Below are positions 26,621 through 36,724 of a DNA stretch of 53,197 nt, one piece after another. Every line of letters starts with the position of its first letter. Positions within the stretch are counted from its first letter, which is position 1. Made by a program: the position numbers and the translations under genes. Below the pieces are notes generated by a model. It saw nothing but the letters and a program-made list of their open reading frames with translations, ran no database searches and had not been told where the DNA came from. The DNA is from an uncultured Saprospiraceae bacterium. Its GTDB lineage: Bacteria; Bacteroidota; Bacteroidia; Chitinophagales; Saprospiraceae. The stretch covers positions 1 to 53,197 of the forward strand of contig CAKZTD010000264.1 of assembly GCA_937921595.1 (NCBI GenBank), written 5' to 3'.

Positions 26621-28267
26621 TTTAGAAACTTCCATAAGAACCCAACGATCTGGATCGACCTCTGGTTTGTCCCCTTTTTTGAAAGGAATAACCAATCCCT
26701 CAGCAGGAATTTCAAAACGTTTTATTTTACCATCAATTTTGACCTCAACAGGCATATGAAAAGGCAATTGATTTGGGGTTTTCCATCTAAGATGGAGCTT
26801 GTTTTTTTCAACATTAGAAATCAAAACAGGAGCTTTGCCTTGGCGAACATAAACATCGAAAAACCAGTGCATATCTTTTCCTGTTATTTGTTCGACGATG
26901 CTGATGAAATCCTCGGTGGTCACAAAACGTACTTGCCGACCGTCTACTTGATCAAGATTGTTGGTGTTTGGATAAGCCATTGTTTTTAAAGCTTTGAAAA
27001 AATCTTCATCGCCAATCAGGTAACGTAAAGTATGGAGTACCCAAGCACCTTTTGTGTAGATGGGAGCTCGGTAAATTTCCTTTCCAGTTTTTGAAGAATA
27101 CGGAGCGATCGGATATTGATTTCGAAACCGCATGCTGTTTATATACTCATGGTAAGCTGCTTTGCCATTGAGGTGTTCTGCATAAAGCGGTTGCATATAA
27201 CTACCAAATCCTTCGTGAATCCACATGTCTTTCCAATCTGAATTCGTAACTAGGTTGCCCCACCATTCATGTGCTAATTCATGTTGATGAAGAGCATCAA
27301 AACCCCAGTCTTTCCCGCCAGTCATGGAGCCATTTTTAAAACCTGCACCATAGGCGATTATTGTTTGATGTTCCATGCCAAGGTGAGGCGTTTGAGCGAC
27401 ACCGTATTTATCTTTTTGAAAAGGGTAGGGGCCGAGAATACTTTCAAACCATTTGACATGATCGATAATCTGAGGCATTAGTTTTTTACCTTTTTCATAA
27501 TCTTCAGGAAGTACATAAAAGTAAACCGGAAAAGAACTACCACTTACGCTTTGTATCTTATCTTCGATTACTTTGTAAGGAGCGATGTTGAGTGCGATAT
27601 TATAATTACTGATTGGTGTGGTGACTTCCCAATGCCAGGTGATCGTTCCATTTCCATTATTGTTATTGGAACGGAGTTTTCCATTGGTTGCAACGACAAG
27701 ATCTTTTGGTACAGTAATGAGTAAATCCATTCGGTCTGGCTTGTCAGAAACGTGATCTTTATTTGGCCACCAGAGGTCAGCTCCTTCGCCTTGACAAGTA
27801 GTCGCAATCCAATGTGCTCCGCTTTTAGTTTTACTCCAGGTAAATCCTCCGTCCCAAGGTGGACGACGAGCGACTCTTGGTTTACCACTATAGTTAATCG
27901 TCAAAGTAACAGAAGAGCCAGTCTGACGAGTGTATTTCATATTGATCCAAATTTTTCCTTTTTTTCGAACATGAGGAACCGGGATAACCATGTCTCCTTC
28001 TCTAGTTTCGTAAATATCGTGGATGGTAAAAGTCGTATCTAGATCAATGACAATCATTGAAGTTGGTTGGACGATACTCGCCCGCATCGTGAGATTACCT
28101 TCAATGAATTTTTTATCTGGTTGTACACTAAGTTCTAAACCATAATATTTGACATCATAAGCAGCTTGCTCTGGCATCAACGGCCCACCAGTATCTATAG
28201 GATCTGATTGAGCAATTAGGAGAGAAGTAAAAAATAATAAGAGGATAGAAAGACGGGTATGACTCAT
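26618..28267 (-). CDS. Secreted M1 family metallopeptidase
   Basis: 549 residues with a signal peptide (LLLFFTSLLIAQ). Gluzincin aminopeptidase fold: an N-terminal beta-domain, substrate-binding GMEHQ (298-302, the counterpart of GAMEN), zinc site HELAH at 329-333 and Glu352 in MWIHEGFGSYMQ, spacing exactly HExxH-18-E, then YTKGAWVLHTLRYLIGD where the catalytic-side Tyr usually lies. It lacks the long C-terminal helical domain of PepN, which is normal for this secreted Bacteroidota group. Likely trims peptides in the periplasm or outside the cell for nutrition. No T9SS sorting domain is visible. Monocistronic as far as can be seen. Confidence 0.92.
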   Translation of the reverse strand: MSHTRLSILLLFFTSLLIAQSDPIDTGGPLMPEQAAYDVKYYGLELSVQPDKKFIEGNLTMRASIVQPTSMIVIDLDTTFTIHDIYETREGDMVIPVPHVRKKGKIWINMKYTRQTGSSVTLTINYSGKPRVARRPPWDGGFTWSKTKSGAHWIATTCQGEGADLWWPNKDHVSDKPDRMDLLITVPKDLVVATNGKLRSNNNNGNGTITWHWEVTTPISNYNIALNIAPYKVIEDKIQSVSGSSFPVYFYVLPEDYEKGKKLMPQIIDHVKWFESILGPYPFQKDKYGVAQTPHLGMEHQTIIAYGAGFKNGSMTGGKDWGFDALHQHELAHEWWGNLVTNSDWKDMWIHEGFGSYMQPLYAEHLNGKAAYHEYINSMRFRNQYPIAPYSSKTGKEIYRAPIYTKGAWVLHTLRYLIGDEDFFKALKTMAYPNTNNLDQVDGRQVRFVTTEDFISIVEQITGKDMHWFFDVYVRQGKAPVLISNVEKNKLHLRWKTPNQLPFHMPVEVKIDGKIKRFEIPAEGLVIPFKKGDKPEVDPDRWVLMEVSK

Positions 28268-28653
28268 TGTTTTTGGTAAATTTAAGGTGTTTTGTCTATT
28301 GATTAATAGTTTTAGGCGTTTTTTTATTTAACAAGTGGATAAGTTGTTATTTATTAGTGGTTGAGACTATTGCTAATTTTGATTTATTTTGCTAAATATC
28401 TTTTGGATAAAACTTTGATCCTTAGTGTGTTGCTCAATATTTTATGTCTGAATGAGAGAATGAGAGAATAGCAGGGGGACTCTAAGTTTTGAGCTAGTTC
28501 CTTTTACATTTTGGAGGGCATTCACTCATTTATTAATTCACTCATTTCTACATTGATATTCAAAAGTGTATAGTAGTTTAAACTTAATTATTAATTTTAA
28601 TTTGCTAGCTTTTAAACCTCTGCAAACGAAGATCACAAAAACTTTTTACAAAT
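28268..28653. other. Non-coding stretch with AATGAGTGAAT-type repeats
   Basis: No coding frame. Contains AATGAGAGAATGAGAG at 28451-28466 and two copies of ATTCACTCATT at 28520-28530 and 28536-28546. The reverse complement of the latter recurs on the far side of the next gene (29374-29409). No consensus promoter is seen. Confidence 0.55.
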
Positions 28654-29301
28654 ATGAAAGCTGTTTTCTTTTTTATTATTAAAACGGTAATGTTATTAGT
28701 ATTGCCGTTTATTGTTTTGATTAGAGGTGCGGTTTATTTTCATTCTAATCATGAGCTGCATCCGCAGTTGGCGATTATAGGAGGAGGAGTGATTACCTTG
28801 GTGGTTTTGATAATTTATTTTTCTTGGTTTTATGGAAGATTAACTGGGAAATTGGGGAGTAAGGAATCGTTTAAATTTAGAGCATTTTTAGCAGCAATAT
28901 TGGTGATTGGATATTGTGCTCATGGTTTGTTTTTTTTTAGTGGTAAAAATGCAAAGACGGATTCGGTAAAAAAAGAATATACCAGTTTACACCCGATTTT
29001 GAGGTTGAGTATTAGTACTATTTTGTTTATTGACAATGAATTAATTTTGACGGATGCTTCAAGACTACCAGAGGATTATCAAAAGATGGGTTTAAAAAAG
29101 AAATCTCATTCTTTACATTATAAACAGAGCAATGGTTACTCACATGCTTTTGATGTTCGAACGAAAGGGCATTCTGAACTTCGGAATACTTTGTTGAAAG
29201 GATATTTTGCGATGATGGGATTGAATACTTTACGGCATGGTGGAACTGGAGACCATTTGCATATTTCTTTGAAGAGTCATGATCGGCCAAGGGGGATTTG
29301 A
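28654..29301 (+). CDS. Membrane protein with an M15-like peptidase tail
   Basis: 215 residues. Three hydrophobic segments at about 5-27, 38-60 and 77-97, then a soluble domain. The end of that domain looks like a zinc D,D-/L,D-peptidase of the M15/hedgehog type: a His- and Asp-bearing stretch (SLHYKQSNGYSHAFDVR with His155, His164 and Asp167) and a closing TGDHLHISL (His201, His203) as in the HxH of that fold. If correct, it would cut peptidoglycan peptides or similar at the membrane face. The N-terminal membrane part is not one I recognise. The insertion between His155 and Asp167 differs from the usual spacing, so the assignment is tentative. Confidence 0.6.
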   Translation: MKAVFFFIIKTVMLLVLPFIVLIRGAVYFHSNHELHPQLAIIGGGVITLVVLIIYFSWFYGRLTGKLGSKESFKFRAFLAAILVIGYCAHGLFFFSGKNAKTDSVKKEYTSLHPILRLSISTILFIDNELILTDASRLPEDYQKMGLKKKSHSLHYKQSNGYSHAFDVRTKGHSELRNTLLKGYFAMMGLNTLRHGGTGDHLHISLKSHDRPRGI

Positions 29302-29371
29302 TATTTTAAGGTACTATACAATTTTCTGGGAAAATTTTTATTTTTTAGTGTTTTACTCCATGTTACTTATT

Positions 29372-29410
29372 CGAATGAGTGAATGGATAAAATGAGTGGA
29401 TGAGTGAATT
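29372..29410. repeat. AATGAGTGAAT repeats, inverse of those upstream of the M15-like gene
   Basis: AATGAGTGAAT at 29374-29384, AATGAGTGGAT at 29391-29401 and GATGAGTGAAT at 29399-29409. The same 11-mer occurs in opposite orientation at 28520 and 28536, so the M15-like gene is bracketed by inverted copies. Confidence 0.6.
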
Positions 29411-29517
29411 AGAGGGGAAGCTTAAAGCCTCAAGTATAAATCTCAAACATTCTCTTATTTCGTTGATCCAATAATCATTACCTTTTGATTTTAATAAAGT
29501 ATCAATTTTTAATATCT

Positions 29518-29988
29518 CTACTTATTCTCTATTTTAAAAACACTATCCTTGTCAAAGGTCAATAATAGTCCACTTTCATAGAGCCATTTTTCTGCAAGCT
29601 TTTCGGTATAAATTTCTTTGGGTTCTCCAATAAATTTTCTGACTTGCTCTCTAGTCATTAGTTTATGGATGAGGGTTAAATCACCTGGAAGGACGACTTT
29701 TGAGAAAACGTAAGGCTCCTTTTTTGAAGGTTGAGTGAATTGCATTTTATCCCCACTCAAAAATTTAAATTTCCTTGGATCAGATTTACTCATGTATTCA
29801 TCTCCACCAATACTAATGTAATTACTCCATCGTCTATCATTTATCCCACGCAAAGAAATTCCTTTTTCATTTTTGAGAACGACTAATTTATTGTTTTCGG
29901 CTTTGTCATTTTGCCAAACACCTTCTGGATCTTTACCACAACTGGTAAATAGAAAGACTGTAAATAGTAAGAGGGTAAGGTTTCTCAT
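29518..29988 (-). CDS. Lipoprotein with BamE/SmpA-like C-terminal segment
   Basis: 156 residues. Lipoprotein signal MRNLTLLLFTVFLFTSC with Cys17. The N-terminal part (GVWQNDKAENNKLVVLKN) resembles small lipocalin-like strands; residues about 110-150 read LMTREQVRKFIGEPKEIYTE, then a tryptophan strand (KWLYESGLLLTFDKDSVFKI), which is the pattern of the BamE/SmpA fold (a 't.eqV...lGeP' helix and turn followed by strands). Such domains mediate protein contacts at the outer membrane. I infer an outer-membrane-attached accessory lipoprotein; it is too short and too divergent to call BamE itself. Confidence 0.7.
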   Translation of the reverse strand: MRNLTLLLFTVFLFTSCGKDPEGVWQNDKAENNKLVVLKNEKGISLRGINDRRWSNYISIGGDEYMSKSDPRKFKFLSGDKMQFTQPSKKEPYVFSKVVLPGDLTLIHKLMTREQVRKFIGEPKEIYTEKLAEKWLYESGLLLTFDKDSVFKIENK

Positions 29989-30450
29989 TGTTGTGTTTTT
30001 TATGTTCGAATTTCAATCAGAACTTTAAAATATCATTATTGTTTAATTTGCTCCAAGCTAAGTTAAGACGGCATTAGGTATTAGGTTCTCGGAACTCTCC
30101 TAATGCCATTTACCCTCAGGGTTTAAATAGACTATTATGGATTTGGTCAATATCTTTCAAGCCTAATTCGCATTTTAAGCTTCAAAGATGCAATATATAA
30201 TAAAATTCAAATAAATTTTCATATCTAAAAATAGCTCTGGACTCTTACTTTTTAAATAGAAGTTATAAGTTCAAGAGCCGGCATTAATTTCTTGTTACGA
30301 GGGGAAACGTACCTGTTATTGATTTTTTCTACCTAGATAAGGAAGTTTATGGCAGTCCTTGCTAAAAAATTGTGCAGTATGTATAGTAATTTGATTGTTG
30401 TAAAATATATTTTTTGTGCTTTGGAAACTTACGTTTAAAATTTACATGAT
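29989..30450. other. Non-coding stretch with one long hairpin
   Basis: No coding frame seen. Contains a 9-bp perfect stem GGCATTAGG (30070-30078) / CCTAATGCC (30099-30107) with an inner GTTC/GAAC hairpin, probably the terminator-like or repeat element described in the findings. The remainder is AT-rich without clear structure. Confidence 0.55.
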
Positions 30451-30482
30451 TTGAAAAGAAGAGAGATATAGGTGCATCTTTG
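30451..30482 (+). promoter_or_regulatory. Possible promoter of the structured RNA
   Basis: TTG at 30451-30453, 21-base spacer, CATCTTTG at 30475-30482 (one mismatch to TAnnTTTG). The start would fall near 30488, just before the closing stem. Confidence 0.4.
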
Positions 30483-30487
30483 TATCA

Positions 30488-30787
30488 AGGAGTTTAGCTA
30501 TTACATCTTTAATGAAGCATACAAGAACATCCGAAAAACCGAAAATATTAAGTAGTTATAGTTTACAAGTGAGGTCATATAATGAACCTGAGAAATTCCG
30601 AAAGTTTGAATTTATGTGTGAGGGGCTATAATCAATCCCAAAAGTGATTTGGCCCCTCGTACCAAACTTGATCTATGAAACGACTAAAGAAACAACAAAT
30701 GATCTTCGGATCATTTTTAAAGATGTAAGATTCAGCTAGCTTTGGAAAGGGAGCAACTACAATGGTAGTTGCGACCCTCTTTTTTTT
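30488..30787 (+). ncRNA. Candidate structured non-coding RNA, family not recognised
   Basis: Predicted transcript of about 300 nt. A 12-base perfect long-range pairing, TTACATCTTTAA (30501-30512) with TTAAAGATGTAA (30717-30728), closes the molecule and may extend through AGCT/AGCT (30496-30499 with 30734-30737). Inside are AAGTTTG/CAAACTT (30602-30608 with 30663-30669) enclosing GAGGGGC/GCCCCTC (30620-30626 with 30652-30658) and AATCA/TGATT, and a hairpin AAATGATC-TTCG-GATCATTT (30697-30716) with the very stable UUCG loop. A typical intrinsic terminator follows at 30746-30787. Upstream, TTG-21 bases-CATCTTTG (30451-30482) is one base from a consensus promoter. It lacks the conserved words of RNase P RNA, tmRNA and SRP RNA; 6S-like or new families remain open. 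A 39-codon frame (30512-30631) lies inside. Confidence 0.55.
30746..30787 (+). terminator. Intrinsic terminator of the structured RNA
   Basis: GCAACTAC (30753-30760), loop AATG, GTAGTTGC (30765-30772), extended by AGGG/CCCT across a small bulge, then a nine-base T run from about 30780. No plus-strand protein gene precedes it, which is what points to an RNA gene. Confidence 0.85.
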
Positions 30788-30896
30788 GCATCACTTAAAA
30801 AATACGCTATGGTTTTAACATTAGGAATTATAATGATGAGTTTATATGTTGTTGATAACATAAAGAATGACTCCCGTCGTTGATTAACAATGGTTT

Positions 30897-32435
30897 TTAT
30901 AAAACTAAATCCAAGGTTCCACGCTTCTCTATCGTCACTTCTTCGAAATCCCGATCTTCCAATTTTCCTTTCAGCCAAGATAAAATATCGAAATATTCAA
31001 AAGCTCTTGCTTCGAACTCATTGTCAGTAAGCGATGATAATTCATTGTACATTTCTCGAAAGCCTTTGAGGATTTGCTTATCCGTAAAGTTGGGATACTT
31101 TTTTAGAAATCTTAAAACAATAGATTCCGTTTTATAAAGTCGTTTTCGTTTTAATAAAAAACGATAAGTAGATTTTACGATATACTCCAGGAGTTGGTCA
31201 TTCCCCAGTTCATAATGAATGAACAAATTCAGTATCCTTCCAAAACTATAAAGATCGGCTCTTGCCTTTAATTCTGGTTCATCCAAAAGCGAATTGATCC
31301 AATCTAATGCGACATTATAATTTCCTGCACCAAAATTCAAATAAGCCAAATTGTAATAGAAGCCAATCCGATGATGGATTTCTTTTTCAGAATCGGTGAG
31401 TTCATTCACAACTGGAGCAAGATTGGAAACACCTTTTCTAAATTGTCCAGTGGAGATATAAAGATCAATTTCCAAATTATAACTTCTAGTAAAGAGTCGC
31501 TTTTTCAGCGCATTAGAACTGGTCGGAATTTCGCGAAGTTTTCTAAGGTTAAGTAATCCTTCTTCGTACTGATGCAATTGTTTTTGTATGATGTATAGAT
31601 TAATCAGCGAACTGATATAATTGGCTTCCCGATCTCCTTTTAATAAATTGGCATCTAGTTTTTCAAACATCAAAACCTGAGCTTGCATGTGCTCCAGACA
31701 TTTTTCCCATTCCGATATTTGAAAATAATAAAGGAATCGAGCATTATGATAAAACATTCTGGCATTGAAAGATTTTGCATTTTCAATATCTTGATAAAGC
31801 TCATCTTCAAACATTTTACTATAAGCTTCTTTCTCTTCAGCTTTTCGAATTCCACCTTGTTTCCAGTAAGGAATAAATATATTGTCATGGAGTAATTGAA
31901 ATTCTAGATAATTTTTATAAATATCTAAAATGCCTATTTCCTTTTGGAAGTCTACGTTGACGTACTGTTCCAAACCCTTGACGTCATTCCGAGAATTGAT
32001 GATTTGGTGCTTCCATCGATAGACTTCAAGCACCTGTAAAAAACGCTCATTTTCAGTAGCTGACTTCATGGCTTTGTCAAGAATCTTTTCACTTTGTTGG
32101 ATTAGTCCCTTCTTGAAAAGTATCTGCGCATTACGCATTAAAACAGGAAATGGATCTTCGGAATTGCTCTCGTGGTATTGTCTTAAACTATTGAGTATCA
32201 GTCGATATAAATAGTTTTTTGTAACGTGGAGCTGCTTGATGAAAGTCTGTCCTACAAATTTTTTCTTAATCTTGACCTCATCATATGCTTGTTGTTTGTC
32301 AATAGCATCAAAAAGCTGGACGTATTTATTCTCTTTACCAATGACATGCCTGGCAGCGAAGAGTTTGAAATATCTTTTCTCTTGCTTAGAAAGAGATTTG
32401 ATCAACTGAAATAATTCTAATGATACCGTTTTCAT
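30897..32435 (-). CDS. Hypothetical protein, predicted all-helical (TPR-like)
   Basis: 512 residues, no signal peptide or membrane segment, so probably cytoplasmic. It begins with SLELFQLIKSLSKQEKRYFKLFAARH and consists of repeated helix pairs with alternating aromatic and small residues (for example NARMFYHNARFLYYFQISEWEKCLEHMQAQ and LAYLNFGAGNYNVALDWINSLL), the look of a degenerate TPR superhelix. Such proteins are frequent in Bacteroidota but I know of no assigned function. Its 3' end faces the terminator of the structured RNA (convergent, about 110 nt apart); its 5' side is divergent from the SprB-like gene across 449 non-coding bases. Confidence 0.75.
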   Translation of the reverse strand: MKTVSLELFQLIKSLSKQEKRYFKLFAARHVIGKENKYVQLFDAIDKQQAYDEVKIKKKFVGQTFIKQLHVTKNYLYRLILNSLRQYHESNSEDPFPVLMRNAQILFKKGLIQQSEKILDKAMKSATENERFLQVLEVYRWKHQIINSRNDVKGLEQYVNVDFQKEIGILDIYKNYLEFQLLHDNIFIPYWKQGGIRKAEEKEAYSKMFEDELYQDIENAKSFNARMFYHNARFLYYFQISEWEKCLEHMQAQVLMFEKLDANLLKGDREANYISSLINLYIIQKQLHQYEEGLLNLRKLREIPTSSNALKKRLFTRSYNLEIDLYISTGQFRKGVSNLAPVVNELTDSEKEIHHRIGFYYNLAYLNFGAGNYNVALDWINSLLDEPELKARADLYSFGRILNLFIHYELGNDQLLEYIVKSTYRFLLKRKRLYKTESIVLRFLKKYPNFTDKQILKGFREMYNELSSLTDNEFEARAFEYFDILSWLKGKLEDRDFEEVTIEKRGTLDLVL

Positions 32436-32884: not shown

Positions 32885-35800
32885 ATGGGAAGACGAATAA
32901 TAAAAATATTAACAGTACTCTTTTTATGGTCACTTTCCTCATCGGGATTGATGGCACAAATCGAAACAGGAACTTTTAGTACATCATGTACTTTTGAAGT
33001 GTCTTATACGATTCACCATCCTACCTGTCCGGAAGAAGCTGACGGTTCTATTGATCTAGTAGTGGCCAATGCTACGGGGATCGCCTGCTATTATTGGATG
33101 GAAGGTGCTACTGGAAATGAACCAAATCTTAATCAATTATCAGCTGGTGTATATAAGGCTAGTATTGGAGATGAAGCCTTGTGTTTTGACACCTTGACTT
33201 TTTCCCTTAATGATCCGACACCTCTTGCATTTGAAGTGGACGGTATTAAAAGTTGCCCTGGATCAAATAATGGAAAAATAACCGTCAACCCAATTTCTGG
33301 AAATGCTGATGCTTATGCTTTGGATGGAGGGGCTTCTCAAGTTGATCCGGTCTTTCCAAACCTTGAGCCAGGTATGCATACCGTTCGGGTATTCGATGCA
33401 GCAGGATGTTATTATGATGAAGAAATAGAAATAACAGAGGCCGAGACACCCATAGTCACCTTCGCACAGGAGGAGTCATCTTGTTCAAATGCAGGTGACG
33501 CTTCCTTTATTGTGATTATTGAGACGGTCAACAATACAGAAACTTATGAGTATTCAATAGATGGTGAGAACTACTTACCTGATTCTACTTTTACAGATTT
33601 AGAAGTCGGAAATTATGAAGTCTTCATTCGAAACAGTAACCTATGTGTGTTTACGGAGCAGATTGATATTTCTGCAGTAGAAGCACCCGAGGTAAGTTTT
33701 GATAAAAGCGATGTTACTTGTCCAGGAGGAGCAGATGCTTCTTTTATAGTCATCATAGAAACGGTTAATAATTCTGAGGATTATGAATACTCCACAGACG
33801 GAATTAACTATCAGTCAAACCCTGTTTTCGAAAATCTTGAATCCGATTTTTATCAGGTCTTTGTAAAAAATAGCTCTGATTGTATTTATGAAGAAACTGT
33901 TTTTGTTGAAGAACCTGAAACTCCTACAATCAATTTTGATGTTAATGAAGTGACTTGTCCGGATGGATCGGATGCGTCCTTCATTGTCATCATCGAAACG
34001 GTTAATAATAGTGAAGGTTATGAGTATTCAATTGATGGAGATTATTTTCAATATGATTCTACTTTTACGGATTTAGAAGCTGGAGTTTATGAGGTAGTAT
34101 CTCGAAATCCTCAGGGATGCGAGTTTATTCAATTGGTCGAAATTGAAGAGCCGGTTGTACCTATCATTGATTTTGAAAAAACAGATGTCAGTTGTCCGGG
34201 GGGGACAGATGCTTCGTTTATTGTTATTATAGAAACGGTCAATAATTCTGAAAATTATCAGTATTCAATTGACGGAGATAATTATCAAGAGGATTCTACC
34301 TTTAATGATTTACCTGCTGGATTTTATGAAGTTTATGCAAAAAATAATTCAGATTGTATTCACAGTCAAATTGTAGAAATAGTAGAGCCAGTTGAACCGA
34401 ATATTGATTTTGAAATAAGTGACGTGACTTGCCCGAATGGAAATGATGCTTCCTTTATAGTGATCATCGAAACGGTAAATAATTCCGAATCTTATGAGTA
34501 TTCTTTAGATGGTGAAAATTTTCAAGATGATTCTACTTTTGTTGATTTAGAAGCAGGAGCTTACCAAGTCTATGCTCGGAATACTGCTGGATGTGAGTTT
34601 ACGGATATTATGGAAGTGGATGAGCCAGAGATGCCAGAGATTGATTTTGAAATAAGTGACGTGACTTGCCCGGATGGAAATGATGCCTCTTTTATAGTGA
34701 TCATAGAAACGGTTAATAATTCAGGAAATTTTGTTTTTTCTTTAAATGGAAATGAATATCAAGAGGATTCAACTTTCACACAATTATCTGCGGGTATACA
34801 TAACGTTACCATTAAAAATGAAGCCTCCTGTTTATTTACAGAGGTGATCGAAATTCAAGAACCTTCAGAACCAGAATTAGGTTTCGAAATAGATGATGTT
34901 ACCTGTGCTGGAGGAAGTGATGCTTCCTTTATAGTCATCATAGAAACAGTCAATAATTCCGATTACGAGTATTCGATCGGGGATGGGATCTTTCAAGAAG
35001 ACTCCTTATTCGTTGACTTAGATGCGGGTATTTATGACATCTCAGTCCGCAATGCTGACGGTTGTGTAAGTTCCGAAAGTATTGTCATAGAAGAACCTTT
35101 AACACCCTCCATCGACTTTGGTACCAATGATGTGACGTGTGCCGGGGGAACGGATGCGTCACTCATTGTTATCATAGAAACAGTGAATAACAGTGATAGT
35201 TATGAGTACTCTCTTGATGATATAGAGTACCAAATGGATTCTACTTTTTATAATCTTGCAGCTGGAGTTTACACGGCTTATATTCGAAATCAAGATAATT
35301 GTGTTTATTCTGAATTGGTATCTGTTTCTGAACCTCTTGAAACAGACGTTTCGCTAATCAATACGGATGTCAGTTGTCCAGGAACAGACGATGGTAGTAT
35401 TTCTGTTGCTGCGCAAGGAGAGGGAAGTGTTTTTGAATATTCTCTGGATGGAATTAATTTCCAAACATCAAATACTTTTGAAAATTTAGAAGCTGGTGTT
35501 TATGTGGTAACTGTTCGAAATGAAGCAACTTGTGAAGTGTCGGAAAATACATTGATCACAGCACCTCCGCCCCCTCAATATGAAACCAATATCAATCCGG
35601 TATCCTGTAATAATGGAACGGATGGAAATATAGAAATCAATATTTTATCAGGAATTACTCCTTTTGAATTTGCACTAAATGGTGGTGCGTTTCAATCGGA
35701 TAATCTATTCGAAAATCTTTCTGCTGGGACTTATACATTAAATATGATTGATGATTCCGGCTGTATTTTTACTAGTGTAGCAAACTTAAATGAACCTCCA

Positions 35801-36724
35801 CCAATTAATGCTATAATAAGTAATCAAAATGAAACTTGCGATCATGCTAATGGCTGGATTGCAGTAGCAGTAGAAGGTGGCACTTCGCCTTATAACTATG
35901 AATGGCAAAATGAAGAGACGACCCCATCTGTTTCCGAATTATCTGAAGGTGTCTACCGAGTATCTGTAACCGATGGGAATAACTGTCTACTAGTAGATAG
36001 TATTCTTATCGAAAATGAACCTGCTCCTGATATTGAGGCGGAGCTCCAAAGTTTGAATTGTTTCGATGCTGAGGATGCTTGGATTAGTCTCAATGTTCAG
36101 AGTCTGGCTCCTCCTTTTAATTTTGTGTGGTCAAATGGTGATGACACAGAACAAGTCAGTGATCTTTCTGCTGGAGAATATAGTGTTACAGTTACAGACC
36201 AGAATAATTGTTTGACTTCTGCAGAGTTTACGATAGAAGAACCAGAAGAACTTCAGGTTCTAGGAGAAGTCGTTGCTTTTGAAACAACGGCAAGAGTTGA
36301 TTTACAGGTCGAAGGCGGCGAAGCACCTTATAGTTATGAATGGTCTAATGGTAAAAATACGAAAGATCTTTCCGAGGTTCCTTTTGGATATTATTCGGTA
36401 TTGGTAACTGATGCGAATGGTTGTGAAATTAATGCTGATTTTAGAGTTCAAGATCCTAGTTTGCCATTTGATGGTGCGATCAATGTTTATCCTACATTGA
36501 CTTCTAATGAAGTGAATATTGATATTCAATTACCGGAAGCTTTACCAGTGAATATTTGTTTGATTGATGAGCTTGGAAGAATTGTTCAAATCATAGATCC
36601 TTCAACTATTGAGAATCAAGTAGTAACTATGGATTTAGAAAACCTTTCTGCTGCGATGTACTATATTCGAATTGATATAGGGGAGGAACAAATTGTGAAG
36701 AAGGTGGTGAAGGTGATTGAGTAA
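32885..36724 (+). CDS. SprB-repeat surface adhesin with T9SS sorting domain
   Basis: 1,279 residues. Signal peptide (SSSGLMAQ), then about 14-15 tandem modules of ~75-80 residues related to the SprB repeat, each opening with a Cys (CPGG.DAS...) and holding a second Cys before the next (RN...C). Eight consecutive modules (cores at residues 205 to about 770) share the almost invariant core DASFIVIIETVNNS; flanking modules are ordinary SprB repeats (for example VEGGTSPYNYEW, VEGGEAPYSYEWSNG). The last ~85 residues (INVYPTLTSNEVNIDIQL ... QIVKKVVKVIE) are a type A T9SS C-terminal domain. It is a likely cell-surface or released adhesin exported by the PorU/PorV system encoded at the left of the window. 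A perfect 19-bp bidirectional terminator follows. Confidence 0.9.
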   Translation: MGRRIIKILTVLFLWSLSSSGLMAQIETGTFSTSCTFEVSYTIHHPTCPEEADGSIDLVVANATGIACYYWMEGATGNEPNLNQLSAGVYKASIGDEALCFDTLTFSLNDPTPLAFEVDGIKSCPGSNNGKITVNPISGNADAYALDGGASQVDPVFPNLEPGMHTVRVFDAAGCYYDEEIEITEAETPIVTFAQEESSCSNAGDASFIVIIETVNNTETYEYSIDGENYLPDSTFTDLEVGNYEVFIRNSNLCVFTEQIDISAVEAPEVSFDKSDVTCPGGADASFIVIIETVNNSEDYEYSTDGINYQSNPVFENLESDFYQVFVKNSSDCIYEETVFVEEPETPTINFDVNEVTCPDGSDASFIVIIETVNNSEGYEYSIDGDYFQYDSTFTDLEAGVYEVVSRNPQGCEFIQLVEIEEPVVPIIDFEKTDVSCPGGTDASFIVIIETVNNSENYQYSIDGDNYQEDSTFNDLPAGFYEVYAKNNSDCIHSQIVEIVEPVEPNIDFEISDVTCPNGNDASFIVIIETVNNSESYEYSLDGENFQDDSTFVDLEAGAYQVYARNTAGCEFTDIMEVDEPEMPEIDFEISDVTCPDGNDASFIVIIETVNNSGNFVFSLNGNEYQEDSTFTQLSAGIHNVTIKNEASCLFTEVIEIQEPSEPELGFEIDDVTCAGGSDASFIVIIETVNNSDYEYSIGDGIFQEDSLFVDLDAGIYDISVRNADGCVSSESIVIEEPLTPSIDFGTNDVTCAGGTDASLIVIIETVNNSDSYEYSLDDIEYQMDSTFYNLAAGVYTAYIRNQDNCVYSELVSVSEPLETDVSLINTDVSCPGTDDGSISVAAQGEGSVFEYSLDGINFQTSNTFENLEAGVYVVTVRNEATCEVSENTLITAPPPPQYETNINPVSCNNGTDGNIEINILSGITPFEFALNGGAFQSDNLFENLSAGTYTLNMIDDSGCIFTSVANLNEPPPINAIISNQNETCDHANGWIAVAVEGGTSPYNYEWQNEETTPSVSELSEGVYRVSVTDGNNCLLVDSILIENEPAPDIEAELQSLNCFDAEDAWISLNVQSLAPPFNFVWSNGDDTEQVSDLSAGEYSVTVTDQNNCLTSAEFTIEEPEELQVLGEVVAFETTARVDLQVEGGEAPYSYEWSNGKNTKDLSEVPFGYYSVLVTDANGCEINADFRVQDPSLPFDGAINVYPTLTSNEVNIDIQLPEALPVNICLIDELGRIVQIIDPSTIENQVVTMDLENLSAAMYYIRIDIGEEQIVKKVVKVIE

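What the first reader, a model, noticed from the sequence alone, without database searches (positions are those of the whole stretch)
30451..30787. Candidate new structured RNA of about 300 nt
A non-coding zone contains a promoter-like element, a 12-base perfect long-range pairing (30501-30512 with 30717-30728), nested stems (AAGTTTG/CAAACTT, GAGGGGC/GCCCCTC), a UUCG-capped hairpin and an intrinsic terminator with no plus-strand protein gene before it. The parts are in the right order for one independent RNA. It lacks the conserved words of RNase P RNA, tmRNA and SRP RNA. That these stems form together is inference.
Basis: partly seen in the sequence, partly recalled or inferred. Interest (0 to 1): 0.75.

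Follow-up and report, generated by a model that had tools for sequence, protein, structure and literature searches.

The report
Lineage-specific small RNA, frozen 3' end
A stretch between two genes of an uncultured bacterium very probably makes a small regulatory RNA of about 300 bases, seen so far in only three related species, whose tail has stayed almost letter-identical while the rest of it, and even the silent positions of nearby genes, have changed nearly beyond recognition.

Summary
Rfam finds nothing. The same locus lies between the same two genes in two other species of the genus. Only two blocks of the intergenic region match clearly: the promoter (77% and 79% identity to the window) and a 70-71-nt 3' module (97% and 96%) with 43 invariant bases (30718-30760) and the terminator. 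Fourfold-degenerate sites of three flanking genes are only 29-44% identical, so this is strong purifying selection. A 7-8-bp tetraloop hairpin abutting the invariant block keeps its shape with two-sided changes in 6 of 7 pairs. The invariant word occurs in 3 of 396 genomes of the order. Best reading: a young independent small RNA acting through its invariant 3' segment, probably by base pairing; no target was found. Rivals: a two-strand convergent terminator/antisense element, or a protein- or RNA-polymerase-binding RNA. New sRNA family of a known kind; expression untested.

The parts
30420..30486 (+). conserved promoter block: upstream element TTTGGAAACTTACGTTTAAAAT, TTG at 30451-30453, CATCTTTG at 30475-30482
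   Evidence: 77% (64 nt) and 79% (66 nt) identity to G002 and G001; 21-nt spacing in 3 of 3 species; the upstream element shows no excess of copies elsewhere, 14 sites against 19 for the control in 5 genomes
30487..30787 (+). predicted RNA, about 301 nt (start inferred from the -7 box, end from the T-run)
   Evidence: sequence; -7 box position after PMC9723704; no transcript data
30501..30512 (+). 5' arm of the 12-bp long-range stem, this species only; may mask 30717-30728
   Evidence: not conserved
30602..30669 (+). central hairpin, 7 + 18 bp
   Evidence: fold; central hairpins of similar length in G002 and G001, but shuffles reach that length in 30-65 of 500
30697..30716 (+). 8-bp hairpin with tetraloop that abuts the invariant block
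   Evidence: same place in 3 of 3 species, two-sided changes in 6 of 7 pairs; 17-20 of 500 shuffles have one there
30718..30760 (+). 43 invariant bases; supposed working segment, runs into the terminator stem
   Evidence: identical in 3 of 3 species; fourfold sites of neighbours 29-44% identical
30748..30787 (+). intrinsic terminator, stem 30748-30778 and T-run 30780-30787
   Evidence: stem core unchanged in 3 of 3 species; not listed by the strict scan

Best explanation
The locus is an independent small-RNA gene of an unnamed Saprospiraceae genus. A housekeeping-type promoter starts a transcript at about 30487 that ends at the terminator at 30787. The hairpins in the body (a central one of about 25 bp and a 7-8-bp one just before the invariant block) serve as spacer and stabiliser and may change sequence freely. 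The working part is the invariant 3' segment (30718-30747, leading into the terminator stem), which most likely pairs with one or more mRNAs elsewhere in the genome and changes their translation or stability. In this species a 5' arm can pair with the segment and may hold it back. Shown: conserved promoter and terminator at a syntenic locus, sequence-level selection on the 3' module, shape-level conservation of the small hairpin. Inferred: transcription, exact ends, pairing as mode of action, the target, and gating by the 5' arm. The 0.5 is for the pairing mechanism; that this is an independent small-RNA gene at all I put near 0.85.
For: Synteny in G002 and G001 between the same 215-aa and 512-aa genes. 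In the whole intergenic region only promoter and 3' module give blastn matches below E 0.01: the module at 97.2% (71 nt), 95.7% (70 nt) and 94.4% (72 nt) for the three species pairs, against 29-44% identity at fourfold sites of three neighbouring genes. Identical promoter spacing in 3 of 3. Small hairpin with two-sided changes in 6 of 7 pairs. No conserved small ORF. No Rfam family. One clear copy per genome. Constraint on letters in an otherwise shape-only RNA is what a pairing segment or a protein site would leave.
Against: No target: complements of the block found by BLAST share no gene between the three genomes; a 17-nt complement with up to 3 mismatches gives 24, 25 and 16 sites in G000, G001, G002 against 22, 12 and 15 for the reversed control (one site in each is the RNA locus itself), and of the 30 of 65 sites whose surroundings were fetched one lies near an ORF start and none share a related gene. 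The block is not clearly single-stranded in the folds: mean unpaired probability 0.25, 0.54 and 0.44 in G000, G002, G001. A frozen terminator stem is not needed for a simple seed. Only three sequences. No transcript data.
Confidence: 0.5

Rival explanations
1. The 3' module is a two-strand element: terminator of the RNA on the plus strand and 3' untranslated region/terminator of the convergent 512-aa gene on the minus strand, so that the two transcripts overlap tail to tail and the RNA controls that gene in cis by antisense pairing.
For: The T-run ends 8 nt (G002) and 9 nt (G001) from the stop codon of the 512-aa gene, so its mRNA must run into the module in antisense unless it stops within that gap. 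Synteny with this gene is kept in 3 of 3 species with the RNA. In G003 the gap between the 512-aa ortholog and its convergent neighbour holds a terminator that resembles the module weakly (14.6 bits, E 0.5).
Against: In the window the gap is 109 nt. On the minus strand the hairpin is followed only by UUUCC, no real U-run. The invariant block reaches some 30 nt beyond the hairpin. Terminators in convergent gaps need no fixed letters, and the orthologs in G003, G033, G018 and G026 have a convergent gene 41-130 nt away without the block.
Confidence: 0.2
2. The 3' module is a protein-binding site, and the RNA works by titrating or guiding a protein; one version is a 6S-like decoy of RNA polymerase, since the block contains TAGCTTTG (30737-30744), a fit to the -7 box TAnnTTTG.
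For: Letters of the terminator stem are frozen as well as the block, which suits recognition of the module as one unit. No 6S RNA (RF00013) is found in 40 genomes searched, this one included, while five control genomes ring.
Against: The -7-like word was noticed afterwards; by my own arithmetic it has about a 2% chance in a block of this length. The RNA does not share the rod with central bubble of 6S RNA in the three folds. Its narrow distribution does not suit a housekeeping decoy. RF00013 may simply miss diverged 6S RNAs of this family.
Confidence: 0.2
3. Not an RNA gene: a conserved promoter region and a conserved terminator of a lost or unrecognised small protein gene.
For: Small frames are open in each species; the frame ending KDVRFS crosses the block in G000 and G002 and, read by eye, also in G001.
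Against: No shared start codon and no related peptide; invariance continues past the stop codon; all synonymous positions in the block are unchanged although such sites are saturated in neighbouring genes. The few changes in the terminator loop alter the only similar frame (LEREQLQW/LEREQLQR/LEREQLRW) non-synonymously.
Confidence: 0.05

Closest known systems
Independent intergenic sRNAs of Bacteroidota, e.g. the Rfp RNAs of Flavobacterium psychrophilum (PMC9723704, passages seen)
   Same: own transcript outside coding genes, -7 box of the TAnnTTTG kind, no coding potential, some conserved only within the genus
   Different: here the 3' end including terminator letters is frozen while the body has turned over; target unknown; no sequence comparison with the Rfp RNAs was made
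6S RNA (RF00013, 6S-Flavo RF01685)
   Same: independent structured RNA; invariant block contains a -7-like word
   Different: no Rfam match; no shared rod with central bubble; narrow distribution
Retron msr-msd RNA (recalled description)
   Same: long-range inverted repeat of about 12 nt enclosing hairpins
   Different: that repeat is not kept in the relatives; no reverse transcriptase among the four neighbours scanned

Membership tests
Independent sRNA gene | own promoter conserved with the RNA | tested here: met
   TTG-N21-CAnnTTTG in 3 of 3 species; 77% and 79% identity to the window over 64 and 66 nt
Independent sRNA gene | intrinsic terminator at the end | tested here: met
   stem plus T-run in 3 of 3 species; the strict scan did not list it
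Independent sRNA gene | no conserved reading frame | tested here: met
Independent sRNA gene | detected transcript | not testable with these tools
   no expression data
Trans-acting base-pairing sRNA | conserved accessible pairing segment | tested here: inconclusive
   segment invariant but partly paired in the folds
Trans-acting base-pairing sRNA | conserved target site in orthologous mRNAs | tested here: inconclusive
   none found with long matches; short seeds could not be tested genome-wide because whole genomes were not available as files
6S RNA | match to the Rfam 6S models | tested here: not met
   window 0 gathering hits; RF00013 0 in this genome with 5 controls ringing; RF01685 rang in no control, so says nothing
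6S RNA | rod with closing stem and large central bubble in every member | tested here: not met
   MFE folds of the three RNAs share no such rod
RNase P RNA, tmRNA, SRP RNA | Rfam match | tested here: not met
   no match; invariant word in only 3 of 396 order genomes, unlike a universal RNA
Retron msr-msd | adjacent reverse transcriptase | tested here: not met
   Pfam on the four neighbours 26621-32435 shows none
Retron msr-msd | a1/a2 inverted repeat kept | tested here: not met
   5' arm absent in G001 and unlike in G002

The most novel reading that the evidence does not exclude
A clade-specific RNA in which the terminator itself is part of the recognition element: the 3' module (43 invariant bases, the -7-like word TAGCTTTG, a frozen terminator stem) is bound as one unit by a protein, possibly RNA polymerase with the housekeeping sigma factor, in a family in which no 6S RNA was detected, while the rest of the RNA is free to turn over.
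Probability: 0.1. Interest if true: 0.75.

Novelty: new member of a known kind. Interest (0 to 1): 0.36.

Why it matters
It is a concrete new sRNA family, with promoter, likely ends and a likely working segment, in a group of uncultured bacteria; my literature searches (listings) surfaced no paper on an sRNA of this group. The contrast between a frozen terminator and a turned-over body points to the 43-70 nt to test and is a clean case of an RNA whose shape and whose letters are under separate selection.

Tried and rejected
Known family: Rfam at gathering and lax thresholds gave nothing meaningful. 6S: RF00013 0 of 40 genomes, this one included; RF01685 rang nowhere, so says nothing.

Wider distribution: blastn in 60 relatives (5 of 60 at E 0.001; besides G000, G001, G002 only 28 and about 31 nt in G025 and G045, read as chance); 26-mer in 150 family genomes (2 of 150; G001 and G003 were not in that draw); covariance model in 249 family genomes (4 of 249; the fourth, G207 at E 0.0037, is what 249 searches give by chance); 33-mer in 396 order genomes (3 of 396); genome contigs 2; viral contigs 0. 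Next to the 512-aa orthologs of G003, G033, G018 and G026 a convergent ORF of over 400 aa leaves 41-130 nt and no room for the RNA. A possible copy in G004 lies inside a 254-aa ORF.

Targets: BLAST complements of the block, 17-nt complement (surroundings seen for 30 of 65 sites), pairing with the starts of three shared neighbours: nothing consistent. The excess in G001 (25 against 12 control) is not matched in the other two genomes. The best single pairing value, the G002 215-aa gene (8 of 200 shuffled seeds as good), is not matched in the other two species. In one search loci of minus-strand hits were read on the wrong strand; one search repeated the analysis on both strands. Promoter-motif regulon: 14 sites against 19 control in 5 genomes. 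Length of the central hairpin as evidence: shuffles reach it in 65, 42 and 30 of 500, so I do not lean on it. Small protein: rejected.

Full report
Observation. The promoter reads TTG (30451-30453), 21 nt, CATCTTTG (30475-30482), one mismatch from the sigma-A -7 box TAnnTTTG described for Flavobacterium psychrophilum at -12 to -5 (PMC9723704, passages), which puts the start at about A30487. The terminator stem is 30748-30778, with eight T at 30780-30787. The fold of 30460-30787 has z -4.2, 0 of 100 shuffles as stable. The 12-bp stem is the longest perfect stem; 1 of 150 shuffles reaches 12 or more. The strict terminator scan lists none, I think because mismatches near the base part the T-run from the uninterrupted 8-bp stem.

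Known families. Rfam 15 gives 0 matches at gathering score in the window, six matches of E 1.2 to 8 with lax settings in 29950-30950, none of a fitting kind, and two of E 1 and 1.4 in the two related loci, outside the RNA. 6S RF00013 is absent from this genome while five control genomes ring, and from all 40 genomes of a second search, this one included. 6S-Flavo rang in no control genome, so that test is void.

Relatives. It lies between the same two genes, a 215-aa protein and a convergent 512-aa protein. In the window an extra 156-aa gene stands between. Of the 5 genomes held for the genus, G003 (75% complete) and G004 give only matches of E 0.5. The invariant 33-mer with up to 3 mismatches is in 3 of 396 genomes of the order. 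The covariance model of the 3' module hits 4 of 249 genomes of the family: these three, and G207 at E 0.0037, expected by chance over 249 searches. In G003, G033, G018 and G026 a convergent ORF of over 400 aa lies 41-130 nt from the 512-aa ortholog, with no room for the RNA.

What is conserved. In the intergenic region two blocks give blastn matches below E 0.01 between species: the promoter block (E 5e-12 to 6e-7; 77% and 79% identity of G002 and G001 to the window, 72% between G002 and G001) and the 3' module (97.2%, 95.7% and 94.4% over 71, 70 and 72 nt). Weaker matches start at E 0.03. Within the module 43 consecutive bases, 30718-30760, are identical in all three. The three neighbouring proteins are 65-85% identical between these species and their fourfold-degenerate sites 29-44%, so neutral positions are near saturation and the module is under strong sequence selection. 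The terminator belongs to this: its 8-bp core is unchanged and only loop and flank letters vary.

The body. Between promoter and module the RNAs are 191-254 nt long and largely unalike. MFE z-scores of this part are -1.9 (window), -4.1 (G002) and -3.5 (G001); 13, 0 and 1 of 300 shuffles are as stable. Each folds a central hairpin of about 25 bp, but shuffles reach the merged length in 65, 42 and 30 of 500, so length alone proves little. Between the window and G002 the outer nine pairs of its inner stem differ at two, each on one side only. Firmer is the small hairpin that ends 0-1 nt before the invariant block: AAATGATC-TTCG-GATCATTT, TGATGCC-GGTT-GGTATCA, ATATGGTT-AGCC-AATCATAT. Of seven pairs aligned by hand from the loop, six change on both sides, one on one side, none is broken. 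A hairpin of 7 bp or more at that place appears in 20, 18 and 17 of 500 shuffles. These counts were made after the hairpin was seen, and any two hairpins aligned at the loop would show two-sided changes; the weight lies in the shared position.

Its 3' arm lies almost wholly in the invariant block. Its 5' arm belongs to a stretch missing in G001 and unlike in G002. It may mask the block in this species (mean unpaired probability 0.25, against 0.54 and 0.44 in G002 and G001), but it is not the conserved core of the RNA.

Coding. No shared small ORF: the window's 39-aa ORF has no counterpart, and the frame ending KDVRFS in the block has no common start or related peptide, while invariance runs past its stop codon.

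Mechanism. An RNA whose body keeps at most shape, while one 3' segment keeps every letter, most likely works through that segment. Pairing with mRNA is the commonest such mode (general knowledge) and I put it at 0.5. I found no target: BLAST complements to the block share no gene among the three genomes; the 17-nt complement with up to 3 mismatches gives 24, 25 and 16 sites against 22, 12 and 15 for the reversed control, one in each genome being the locus itself, and of the 30 of 65 sites whose surroundings were fetched one lies near an ORF start and none share a related gene; the starts of three shared neighbours show no consistent pairing. These searches would miss short seeds. Two rivals remain. 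The RNA ends 8, 9 and 109 nt (G002, G001, window) from the stop of the convergent 512-aa gene, so the module may serve both strands; but the minus strand lacks a proper T-run and the block extends well past the hairpin. Or a protein reads the block: the word TAGCTTTG (30737-30744) fits the -7 box, which would suit a polymerase decoy in a family without detected 6S RNA. That is a post-hoc observation with about a 2% chance by my own arithmetic.

Literature. Three searches were seen as listings, of which 12 of 15, 10 of 16 and 10 of 313 papers were shown; only PMC9723704 was opened, as passages. None of the listed papers is a study of small RNAs in Saprospiraceae; nothing beyond these searches is claimed.

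Verdict. A real-looking, new, narrowly distributed small-RNA gene with a frozen 3' module: new member of a known kind. Transcription, ends and partner remain to be shown.

Noticed in passing
L002 1295-1348: In G002 the RNA carries an extra piece of about 47 nt with an inverted repeat, flanked by the direct repeat AAGATAT and absent from the window; it looks like a small inserted hairpin element.
   Followed up: partly
window 29518-29988: A 156-aa gene (minus strand, lipoprotein-like start by eye) stands between the 215-aa gene and the RNA in this species only; the gap is about 1599 nt here against 714 and 542 nt in G002 and G001.
   Followed up: no
window 32885-36724: A 1279-aa protein with many near-identical repeats around DASFIVIIETVNNS.
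   Followed up: no
L014 1444-1541 (minus strand): In G003 the gap between the 512-aa ortholog and its convergent neighbour holds a terminator that weakly resembles the RNA's 3' module (14.6 bits, E 0.5); the RNA's terminator may descend from an older convergent terminator.
   Followed up: partly
L004 1501-1528: G025 has 27 of 28 bases of the window's -7 region and RNA start (30472-30499) ahead of unrelated genes; probably a shared promoter type and chance.
   Followed up: no
window 30734-30741: The invariant block contains the self-complementary word AGCTAGCT, which could let two RNA copies pair with each other.
   Followed up: no
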